From: Liolophura sinensis
Taxonomy: Eukaryota > Mollusca > Polyplacophora > Chitonida > Chitonidae
Direction of reading: 5' to 3'
Length of the DNA stretch: 64,000 bases
Assembly: GCF_032854445.1 (NCBI RefSeq)
Contig: NC_088302.1
Coordinates: forward strand, 41,482,191 to 41,546,190
The notes beneath the pieces were generated by a model. The model was not told the origin of the DNA, searched no databases, and saw only the letters and a program-made list of their open reading frames with translations. This document shows, piece by piece, positions 18,385 to 22,400 of the stretch. Numbering within the stretch: the stretch's first letter is position 1; the number at the start of each line of letters is the position of its first letter. The translations under genes were made by a program, and so were the position numbers.

Positions 18385-19320
18385 TTAATGAGTTGGTATT
18401 TGTGCTGCTGGTGAAGAGTTATTACTTTTCGCAGTACTGTTGTGATCATTATGTTCGGTGCCTTCATGGCCACGTAAAGCTAATAGTGTCCGAAGTCCTT
18501 CCACTTCGTTTTTCAGTTTATTGTACTCTTCTGAGCACTTTGCTAGGTTGTCAAACTCCCCTTTGGCTTCATTTTCTTTCTGTTTTTCCTCCTCTTTTGC
18601 TTTCTTGGCCAATTCCTTTTTCATGGACAACGACAAATAGTATCCAGCACTCTCGAATATTTTGGCAAGTTTTTTCTTGTAACCTTTTTCTGTGACTTCC
18701 TCCTGGTATAACGCCCCTTCTAAACGGTCCCAGGCCAGCTGCAGCTCTTTACTGAGTGTTGGATACACAAGCATGGAGTGAGGGTGACACACATATGGTG
18801 TCACAAACGTGATCTGGTAATGACAAGTTGACGGTTCCGAAGCGTTAGTCAGTTGATTCTTCTCGCCACACGCGAACACAACTCTCACGCGCCGATACGA
18901 CGTTCCACATCGATCACCTTCCCGATACAACATAGCCACAAACGTGTTGTTTTCGATTTCCCACTCTTGGTACACACCCAGAATACCGTGATAGGGATTC
19001 CAGCGAAGGCTTTTCTCTTGCTGTGTTATGTTTGAAAAATGGCACACTTCGTAAGAGTAGCTATTATCGTCCAGTTTGAAACATTCGTTCCAAAACTTTT
19101 TCAGATGTTGTGGTCCCGAGAAATTAGCAGGTGCTACCCGCATTGTCAGTTTTGGTTCGTTTGGTTCCGTGCGATGACGCTGATCCCACATGTTATTCCA
19201 GCCATAGCTTGACGGCTCCTCGACTATTTTCATCGCTATTTGCTCACTAGCAGACAGCTGCAGAAAACAACATAATAAAATTAACAGAACTAGCATGTTG
19301 TTGTTTGCAACGCTCATCAC
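18385..19320 (-). CDS. GNPTG: N-acetylglucosamine-1-phosphotransferase subunit gamma
   Basis: A 311-codon uninterrupted frame. Residues 1-24 are a signal peptide. The motif MKIVEEPSSYGWNN, the block ITQQEKSLRWNPYHGILG-x-YQEWEIENNTF and SEPSTCHYQITF..CHPHSMLVYPTL are hallmarks of the gamma subunit. Residues about 70-180 form the mannose-6-phosphate-receptor-homology (MRH) domain with Cys at 80, 93, 138, 151, 166 and 178. After about 230 comes a lysine/glutamate-rich coiled-coil-like stretch and an Asn/Ser-rich tail. In animals the alpha/beta/gamma complex adds GlcNAc-phosphate to mannose on lysosomal hydrolases in the Golgi, and gamma helps recognise substrates. Several N-glycosylation sites are visible (NFS, NIT, NNT, NAS). 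Vertebrate GNPTG has many introns and here there is none, which suggests intron loss or retroposition. The gene starts back to back with RPS17. Confidence 0.93.
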   Translation of the reverse strand: MMSVANNNMLVLLILLCCFLQLSASEQIAMKIVEEPSSYGWNNMWDQRHRTEPNEPKLTMRVAPANFSGPQHLKKFWNECFKLDDNSYSYEVCHFSNITQQEKSLRWNPYHGILGVYQEWEIENNTFVAMLYREGDRCGTSYRRVRVVFACGEKNQLTNASEPSTCHYQITFVTPYVCHPHSMLVYPTLSKELQLAWDRLEGALYQEEVTEKGYKKKLAKIFESAGYYLSLSMKKELAKKAKEEEKQKENEAKGEFDNLAKCSEEYNKLKNEVEGLRTLLALRGHEGTEHNDHNSTAKSNNSSPAAQIPTH

Positions 19321-19428
19321 TCTTCTCGGAAGTACATTGAGAGTTCAGTCCCTTTAGTTACAATATTAGCCAATCGAACCACCTCATTATCGCTGAGCCC
19401 CATCACTTCCTTTTTCTATTTGTCCAAC
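19321..19428. promoter_or_regulatory. Bidirectional promoter of GNPTG and RPS17
   Basis: About 85 bp separate the GNPTG ATG (19320, minus) from the likely RPS17 start in the pyrimidine tract at about 19404-19417. The interval holds an ETS-like CGGAAGT (19327-19333) and a CCAAT box (19370-19374) and no TATA box. The CTTCCTTTTTCT tract fits the terminal oligopyrimidine signal that puts ribosomal protein mRNAs under growth-dependent translational control. The GNPTG 5' UTR must be very short. Confidence 0.8.
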
Positions 19429-19431
19429 ATG
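19429..19431 (+). CDS. RPS17: RPS17 coding exon 1 (ATG only)
   Basis: CCAACATG|GTAGGT follows a pyrimidine tract starting near 19404. Exon 2 begins with the second codon, so an upstream exon ending in ATG is required and this is the best candidate. Confidence 0.82.
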
Positions 19432-22400
19432 GTAGGTTGCTCAGAATGTTTCAACCAGCTTACAATCCCCTTCAATCTGTCAGTCCCATGGATCTGTTTT
19501 CCCTAAATACATGATTTGCAAACAGTGCACACATTATAGTTTGGGAAACATGTGGTATTGAAGCTGGAGAAGTAATCATTATCGGTGAGAGCGGACAGAC
19601 ACTAGGTGACTAATAGTGATGCTCTCTATGTGTGATTGTGTACTGTAAAGAAATGTTGAATTGATAGATCTGTATCAGAGTAATGTACCAGGTGGCGGAA
19701 TGGAACAGACATTTCTGTGTCAAAAGCACAAATGTGCTACTGCAAATGCTATTAACTCTATGTACCAAACGCTAACGACTCGTAAAGATGTAGTTGCAAC
19801 AACAACAATGTAGTAGGCCTGCCATAGACTGGTGTAGCATAGGCAGGTGATACAACGTCTCACAGAGGTCGCTTCCTGAAACGCTTGATATTTTCCTATC
19901 CGCACTTGGAGTACCCATAGCGTTTCCTACCTAACATGTTTTCAATCAGCAATCCCTTATAATGATCAAGCATATCTGTTGTAATTTGAAGTCAGAAAAT
20001 TGTGACCAACTCTTTGATGAGAGAAAAATGGATCATATCGCCCAAAGAATGAAACCAGAAGTTAGATCATCTGGTGTGACAAAAAAATAAGGCAGATTAT
20101 AGTTGTGGAGTGAGGTAACTCCCATATCATCAACGCAGTTGGGAGAGGTGCTGACATAAACCTCTGCCAGTGTTGCAGAAAATTTACTGCTGTTGACACA
20201 CACAGTAAATCTTGCCTAGCATAAAACCACATAGTGACCACATGGTGTAATTAACTAGCTTGTTTTGAGAACAACCAAACCAAAATTGGTCCACGGCATC
20301 ACAAAAATGATGGCATTTTCCTTGCCTACACTATTGCGTTAAGTGAGTGCATGCTCTCATCCTGCCTAAATGAGACTGACTTTGAGGTCATGATCTTTTA
20401 TCAGCCTCTGCAAAGTGTAGTGCATGCTGATATGGCAGGGAGTCCAGGAATTATCTGCTTTGAATGTCTTATTGAATAGCCACATTGATCATGTCACTGA
20501 GTGTAGCAGATTGAGGTGGTGGCTGCTGCCGGCTAGATTCTAAGCATTTGCATAGTTCGTGATTTGGTGCAGTTGTCTTTGCTTTTGGTTAGGTCAGCCT
20601 AAGAAAAGGTTACCTTCTTTGGAGGAACATTCGGTTGGCCACTGTTGACCGTAAGAAAGCTCTAAAGCTTGTGTGAATAGGGTTATATGTTCCTTACTGT
20701 AAATCTGACAGGTTTGTGGCTATTTTATTGGGTAACTCTAGCAATTGTACTGCTTAAATCAGCTTTTAGTAGAATTATGTCATATAAAATTGCAATTTGA
20801 AAATACTTACAAACATAATCTGTGCAATAGGCAATCTACTTATTTGATTTAAGCTTCTCAGTTACCTCTACTTATCTTTAAACAACAAGGGTTGGTCAGA
20901 AATTATGACAAAGCCTGCAAATAAATACAACAGAGTGCACTACCCATTTCAGACCAATAGGGTTTTCTGGCCGATATTTGCATGAATTCAGTTCACTGAT
21001 GAACATACTACCGTGCAGCAAAAAAAATCAGTCTTGACACATTTATGGATGTTTTATGAAACTAAAAATGCAAAATCATGGTCATATTTGCTTTAATGAC
21101 AAATGCCAAAAAGTAGAAAAAGTCAAAATTATTCTAAGTGCATTTGTTTTTATCTTTTACACATGTGACACATCACAATGCTGTCCAGTTTAAAATTGAC
21201 AGTAGAACTAACATTGAAGTTCTTCATGGAATAAATGAAGGTAAGTAAACCGGGAAACAATCTGTCACTGTGGCTGATTGACATTTTGATGAAGTATAAT
21301 ATCTTCATGATAAACCTGAACAAAGTATTGATTTTTGTTTTGTTTTGTTTTGTTTTGTAGGGGCGAGTACGTACCAAGACCGTTAAGAAGGCGGCCCGGG
21401 TGATCATAGAAAAGTACTACACCCGTCTGACGCTGGACTTCCACTCCAACAAACGGGTGTGCGAGGAGATTGCCATAATCCCTAGCAAGAAGCTCCGCAA
21501 CAAGATTGCTGGGTAAATCTGATCACATATTATATTACTGTACTGATCAAACCTTAATGTTACTTCAAGTTTATTTGTTGAGACTAACACTGATAGTTAC
21601 ACAATTCCTGTAAATATGCCATTAAAAAGGATGAAAGTGGCAGAATTTATCATCTTTCCAGATCCATCCTTTGAAGTCAAGCTTTTGACCATTTTTACTC
21701 TTAATGTCATCATGGGTTTTTTTTTTTGTTTGTATGTAATTTAATGTGATATACTCTTCAGTAGTTTTCCAAGATTTTTAACATTCAGGCTTGTAAAAAT
21801 ATTGATCTTCTCAACGAAATGTCAGGCCGTATACCCACTCAAGAAGCAGGGAGAAAAATGTGTGTGGGGAAGCGTTGAGCTCTAGATGCAGAAGTTGAGC
21901 TCTAGAAGCAGAAGTCTCTTTCTTGGACTAAAAACAGGGTAGCAAGGTAGTAAATACTGTAAGATGGAATGGAAAATGTAAATAAAGAGCCTGTTGTGCT
22001 TGAATGAGTTTCCATTGTTTAAGTTAAAGAGTTATCTCCCCTGACAGTTGATTTATAAATTCAGATCTATGAAGAGGTATGAAGGAAATTTTTATCAATT
22101 TAAAGAACGAAATGATCATAAATTCGTTTGCTGAATTCTGCTGAAATTTTGAATGGGATGTGTAGTAAGAGGAGAATCTCAGTCAGGTCCATGAAATGTA
22201 CTTTTTTTACACTGTGTTAAGAAGTTGCACATGAAATATTGTACTTTTTTTACACTGTGTTAAGAAGTTGCACATGAAATATTGTACTTTTTTTACACTG
22301 TGTTAAGAAGTTGCACATGAAATATTGTACTTTTTTACACTGTGTTAAGAAGTTGCACAGTTGGGGCATCCGGCAAATTTAAAGAAATCACGGCCCTACA

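What the first reader, a model, noticed from the sequence alone, without database searches (positions are those of the whole stretch)
18385..21512. RPS17 and GNPTG share a promoter of about 85 bp, head to head
The GNPTG ATG on minus and the RPS17 pyrimidine-tract start on plus are separated by a tiny interval with one CCAAT box and one ETS-like site. It links a ribosomal protein with a Golgi enzyme subunit of lysosomal targeting. If the TOP-type start dominates, GNPTG transcription could follow growth signals.
Basis: partly seen in the sequence, partly recalled or inferred. Interest (0 to 1): 0.68.

Follow-up and report, generated by a model that had tools for sequence, protein, structure and literature searches.

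The report
Two-way promoter of RPS17 and GNPTG
In a mollusc genome, a ribosomal-protein gene and a lysosome-targeting gene point away from each other with only 111 bases between their start codons, so they very probably share one promoter; the lysosomal gene has no introns here, which suggests an old reverse-transcribed copy that moved in next to a strong promoter, a known kind of event.

Summary
GNPTG is an intact 310-codon open frame without introns (19317-18385, minus) and the only copy in the genome. RPS17 is a complete five-exon gene (plus), also the only copy, whose first exon ends at its ATG (19429-19431). The two ATGs are 111 bp apart. RPS17's start is well supported by sequence: a textbook polypyrimidine (TOP/TCT) initiator at 19406-19417, probable +1 C at 19410. 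The same motif lies 20-30 nt before the ATG in most other ribosomal-protein genes examined in this genome. At most 92 bp therefore remain for both core promoters; one CCAAT box and one ETS site lie there. An 8-unit haemocyanin supports 'mollusc'.

A TOP tract acts on the RNA that carries it; the GNPTG strand has no run longer than five pyrimidines, so growth (TOR) control is not passed on. Shared transcriptional activation is plausible but untested: no RNA data and no relative genomes were available.

It may be an 'orphan' retrogene using a ribosomal-protein promoter, as with amphioxus SYCP1/CHIC. No poly-A or target-site duplication remains, so simple intron loss is not excluded. A tidy but modest case of a known kind.

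The parts
18385..19317 (-). GNPTG coding region, single exon, 310 aa (MSVANNNMLVLLILLCCFLQLSAS... N-terminus looks like a signal peptide; alternative start MLVLLIL at 19296)
19318..19428 (.). 111-bp interval between the two start codons: shared or abutting promoters
19326..19334 (+). ETS/GABP-like site TCGGAAGTA (reads TACTTCCGA on the GNPTG strand, 16 nt upstream of its ATG)
   Evidence: consensus match only
19370..19374 (+). CCAAT box
   Evidence: consensus match only, 0.18 expected by chance per 111 bp
19406..19417 (+). Polypyrimidine (TOP/TCT) initiator CTTCCTTTTTCT of RPS17; probable +1 C at 19410
   Evidence: fits the consensus (Y)2C+1TY(T)2(Y)3 of PMC554972, the only + strand match from 17 to 22 kb; similar tracts in other RP genes of this genome
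19410..19431 (+). RPS17 exon 1: inferred 19-nt 5' UTR plus ATG, donor GTAGGT
   Evidence: transcription start inferred
21361..21512 (+). RPS17 exon 2
23042..23147 (+). RPS17 exon 3
24328..24393 (+). RPS17 exon 4
26194..26268 (+). RPS17 exon 5 with stop; AATAAA at 26312 and 26367
19315..19403 (-). Possible upstream ORF of GNPTG (MGLSDNEVVRLANIVTKGTELSMYFREE, stop overlapping the GNPTG ATG as TGATG); a shorter in-frame version starts at 19337
   Evidence: conservation not testable

Best explanation
A compact bidirectional promoter. RPS17 starts at a TOP/TCT initiator (C 19410) and has the standard ribosomal-protein gene layout. GNPTG is transcribed the other way from an ordinary, non-TOP start somewhere in the remaining 92 bp or less. 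The open chromatin and activators of the ribosomal-protein promoter (ETS/GABP-like and NF-Y-like sites in the middle) serve both. GNPTG probably came to be there as an intronless copy (reverse-transcribed mRNA) that became the only copy once the original was lost. Shown: positions, gene identities, copy number, intronlessness, initiator motif. Inferred: transcription starts, sharing of activators, origin by retroposition (I give that step about 0.5).
For: Both genes intact and single-copy. The 111-bp gap leaves no room for two separate upstream regions. The TOP tract at 19406-19417 is the only consensus match near the ATG, and RPS3 (TCACTTCCTTTC), RPS18 (TTTCCTTTTCC), RPS13 (CCTCCTTTTTC), RPL23 (ACTTCCTCTTT) and RPS23 (CCCTTTT) carry like tracts at a similar distance from their ATG. 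RPS18 also has a CCAAT box just upstream of its tract. Human GNPTG has 11 exons (PMC7555117) and GNPTAB here is split by introns, while GNPTG here is one exon with no other copy. Mammalian RP promoters favour GABP (ETS) sites (PMC554972).
Against: No transcript data, so the GNPTG start is unknown; a spliced 5' leader starting elsewhere is not excluded. No poly-A trace or target-site duplication around GNPTG. TSR3, which has introns in human by my recollection, also lies in one open frame here, so intron loss may be general in this lineage and intronlessness is weaker evidence for retroposition. No relative genomes could be compared. CCAAT alone is close to chance.
Confidence: 0.7

Rival explanations
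1. Two independent, back-to-back core promoters that merely abut: GNPTG has its own weak start, and its expression does not follow RPS17.
For: The TOP tract is one-sided; divergent neighbours are often not co-regulated (general knowledge). The metazoan survey in PMC2871058 finds functional relatedness mainly in conserved pairs, and conservation is unknown here.
Against: At most 92 bp remain between the RPS17 start and the GNPTG ATG, about one core promoter; physical sharing of activators is hard to avoid.
Confidence: 0.2
2. An ancient head-to-head pair in which GNPTG lost its introns in place (by recombination with its cDNA), with no move of the gene. This rivals only the retrogene step, not the shared promoter.
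For: No retroposition scars; TSR3 is in one open frame too, so intron loss may be general in this lineage.
Against: Loss of all of about ten introns at once, without any relocation, is less usual than retroposition; RPS17 next door, GNPTAB and the other RP genes searched match in separate exons. Not decisive.
Confidence: 0.4
3. GNPTG transcription starts elsewhere (a 5' leader exon inside RPS17 intron 1 or beyond), so the promoter is not shared.
For: The amphioxus SYCP1 retrogene evolved a spliced 5' leader (PMC5803294), so it can happen.
Against: My reading of the minus-strand interval found no acceptor with a pyrimidine tract in the 111 bp upstream of the GNPTG ATG (sequence); there are only two runs of five pyrimidines.
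Confidence: 0.1

Closest known systems
Amphioxus SYCP1/CHIC (PMC5803294)
   Same: A single-exon gene, normally multi-exon, whose parent copy is gone, sitting head to head with another gene whose promoter it is thought to have co-opted.
   Different: There the partner is CHIC, a spliced 5' leader evolved, and expression was tested; here the partner is a ribosomal-protein gene and nothing has been tested at the RNA level.
Orphan retrogenes in human (e.g. CHMP1B; reviewed in PMC5408686)
   Same: Intronless gene that stands in for a lost parent.
   Different: For GNPTG here the parent is inferred only from human; no relative with the parent copy was compared.
Mammalian ribosomal-protein promoters with TOP initiator and GABP sites (PMC554972)
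   Same: Initiator consensus, short first exon, intron separating it from most of the coding sequence, ETS-like sites.
   Different: No TATA and no YY1 site matched in the scan near the start; a divergent partner within 111 bp.
Human TSR3-GNPTG divergent pair on 16p13.3 (from memory; PMC11867066 only shows that both map to chromosome 16)
   Same: GNPTG head to head with a ribosome-related gene.
   Different: Different partner; in this mollusc TSR3 lies on another contig (C3).

Membership tests
Bidirectional promoter (divergent genes under 1 kb apart) | Two genes, opposite strands, starts less than 1000 bp apart | tested here: met
   ATG-to-ATG gap 111 bp
Bidirectional promoter (divergent genes under 1 kb apart) | Transcription in both directions from the interval | not testable with these tools
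   No RNA data
TOP/TCT-type ribosomal-protein promoter (RPS17 side) | Initiator (Y)2C+1TY(T)2(Y)3 with short 5' UTR | tested here: met
   Match at 19408-19417, only one on + from 17 to 22 kb
TOP/TCT-type ribosomal-protein promoter (RPS17 side) | Same type of tract in other RP genes of the genome | tested here: met
   RPS3, RPS18, RPS13, RPL23, RPS23; RPL8 appears to have a 5' UTR intron, RPL15 no first exon found, RPL5 first exon uncertain
TOP mRNA (GNPTG side) | Long pyrimidine tract at the start on the minus strand | tested here: not met
   Longest runs are two of 5 nt, CTCTC and CTTCC
Orphan retrogene | Single coding exon where the ancestral gene is multi-exon | tested here: inconclusive
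   Single exon shown; 11 exons in human (PMC7555117), but the ancestral state is taken from human only
Orphan retrogene | Parent copy lost | tested here: met
   No second GNPTG in the assembly; only weak MRH-domain hits on C7 and C3. Withheld or gap stretches cannot be excluded
Orphan retrogene | Poly-A remnant and target-site duplication | tested here: not met
   No T run of 6 or more at 17000-18390 and no convincing flanking repeat; such scars are expected to be lost if old, so I do not file it as a proven retrogene
GNPTG | Gamma-subunit homology over the MRH domain and C-terminal region | tested here: met
   7s69, 250 bits, residues 28-284; glucosidase II beta scores only 47 bits

The most novel reading that the evidence does not exclude
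A reverse-transcribed GNPTG landed against a ribosomal-protein promoter early in a mollusc lineage, replaced its parent, and now starts at the reversed ETS/initiator motif TACTTCC (C 19332), so that lysosomal enzyme tagging and ribosome synthesis are switched together by one pair of outward-facing initiator-like sites.
Probability: 0.12. Interest if true: 0.55.

Novelty: new member of a known kind. Interest (0 to 1): 0.36.

Why it matters
It adds a clear, testable example of an intronless housekeeping gene living on a ribosomal-protein promoter. If the pair is conserved across molluscs, it would show that lysosomal targeting capacity can be tied to ribosome production simply by gene placement. 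If it is not conserved, it is an ordinary genome rearrangement.

Tried and rejected
TOP control of GNPTG: rejected as argued, no long pyrimidine tract on its strand. An alternative RPS17 first exon in intron 1 or upstream: rejected, no other site fits. A second GNPTG or RPS17 copy: none found. Retroposition scars: none found. Divergent partners at other RP genes: only short ORFs of 43-62 codons within 600 bp, no obvious gene, so this arrangement is not the rule in this genome. Bacterial-type promoter scan of the interval: uninformative. Literature on GNPTG with TSR3 or in molluscs: nothing useful. Rfam: no match in the window.

Full report
Check of the observation. The minus-strand frame at 18385-19344 holds a 310-aa protein from the ATG at 19317. 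Pfam finds the glucosidase-II-beta-like (MRH) domain. The closest solved protein is the GlcNAc-1-phosphotransferase gamma subunit (7s69, E 2.6e-73, 250 bits, residues 28-284), far above glucosidase II beta at 47 bits, so the name GNPTG is right. A genome-wide search finds no other copy; two weak hits on C7 and C3 are short MRH-type matches. RPS17 is complete in five exons with standard splice sites and translates to 133 aa, S17e family E 1.7e-65, and it is the only copy.

Distance. The start codons are 111 bp apart. Exon 1 of RPS17 ends exactly at its ATG, followed by GTAGGT. Exon 2 has no ATG of its own at the start of the frame, so the ATG must come from an upstream exon. In 12 kb upstream of exon 2 only the site at 19429 has a good pyrimidine tract and a donor; one other ATG|GT at 16976 follows a shorter tract that does not fit the consensus.

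The RPS17 start. CTTCCTTTTTCT (19406-19417) fits the mammalian ribosomal-protein initiator (Y)2C+1TY(T)2(Y)3 (PMC554972). This consensus occurs 5 times on the plus strand of 64 kb, and only here between 17 and 22 kb. Eight other RP genes were located and their upstream DNA read. RPS3, RPS18, RPS13, RPL23 and RPS23 have like tracts about 20-30 nt before the ATG; RPS3 shares ATCACTTCCTTT with RPS17. RPL8 appears to carry an intron in its 5' UTR, no first exon was found for RPL15, and the RPL5 candidate is uncertain. The +1 C is therefore most likely 19410, with a 19-nt 5' UTR (inference).

The GNPTG start is unknown. It must fall within 92 bp unless the leader is spliced. The minus strand of the interval has only two runs of five pyrimidines, CTCTC and CTTCC. 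Three upstream ATGs exist; two, at 19403 and 19337, are in one frame that ends in TGA overlapping the GNPTG ATG. If transcription begins far enough upstream, this could damp GNPTG translation (inference).

Shared elements. There is one CCAAT (expected 0.18 per 111 bp), one CGGAAGT (expected 0.017) and one further ACTTCC inside the TOP tract. ETS/GABP sites are typical of RP promoters in mammals. These are consensus matches and do not prove function.

Intronless GNPTG. Human GNPTG has 11 exons (PMC7555117). In this genome GNPTAB's Stealth domain is split between exons and the RP genes searched match in separate exons. A single-copy, single-coding-exon GNPTG next to a strong promoter looks like the orphan-retrogene pattern, for which amphioxus SYCP1/CHIC is a close precedent (also PMC5408686). 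Against this, no poly-A or target-site duplication is seen, and TSR3 also lies in a single open frame here, so intronless conserved genes are not unique in this lineage. I rate retroposition at about 0.5.

Taxon. A tandem of eight mollusc-type haemocyanin domains on the same contig (C8, 37.88-37.89 Mb) supports a mollusc. The species was not identified.

Chance. If one assumes roughly 26,000 genes in 609 Mb (an assumption, not measured), a randomly placed divergent start would lie within 111 bp for about 0.2% of genes. Close divergent pairs are nevertheless known in many animal genomes; PMC2871058 reports enrichment in some vertebrates but not in fishes and non-vertebrate animals. None of the six other RP genes with a first-exon candidate has an obvious divergent partner within 600 bp.

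Verdict. The promoter is probably shared in the physical sense. The claimed growth-signal link by way of the TOP start is not supported. The more interesting lead is the intronless GNPTG.

Noticed in passing
window 19315-19403, minus: A 28-codon upstream ORF (MGLSDNEVVRLANIVTKGTELSMYFREE) ends with TGA overlapping the GNPTG ATG (TGATG), a possible reinitiation arrangement.
   Followed up: partly
window 24500-25688: A 24-bp minisatellite of about 51 copies (CATCAGTACCATACCCCACATTTG) fills much of RPS17 intron 4 and keeps several plus-strand frames open.
   Followed up: no
window 32312-34271: A 68-bp tandem array of about 29 copies at 93% matches, with no gene identified.
   Followed up: no
window 9725-10105 (-), 45624-46542 (+), 55683-57513 (+), 61251-61670 (+): Several exons with chitin-binding Peritrophin-A (CBM_14) domains (two of them just under the Pfam cut-off); 44-46.5 kb and 55.7-58.9 kb look like duplicated genes of like exon order.
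   Followed up: partly
window 3133-5648, plus: Broken retroelement-like frames; the frame at 5172-5648 has a weak integrase core match, below the Pfam cut-off.
   Followed up: no
L040 1147-2202 (G000:C3, about 5.10 Mb): TSR3 is in a single open frame of about 350 codons. By my recollection TSR3 has introns in human and lies head to head with GNPTG there; here both are in single open frames and on different contigs.
   Followed up: partly
G000:C8:37880506-37891931: Eight mollusc-type haemocyanin domains in a row, each in a long open frame.
   Followed up: no
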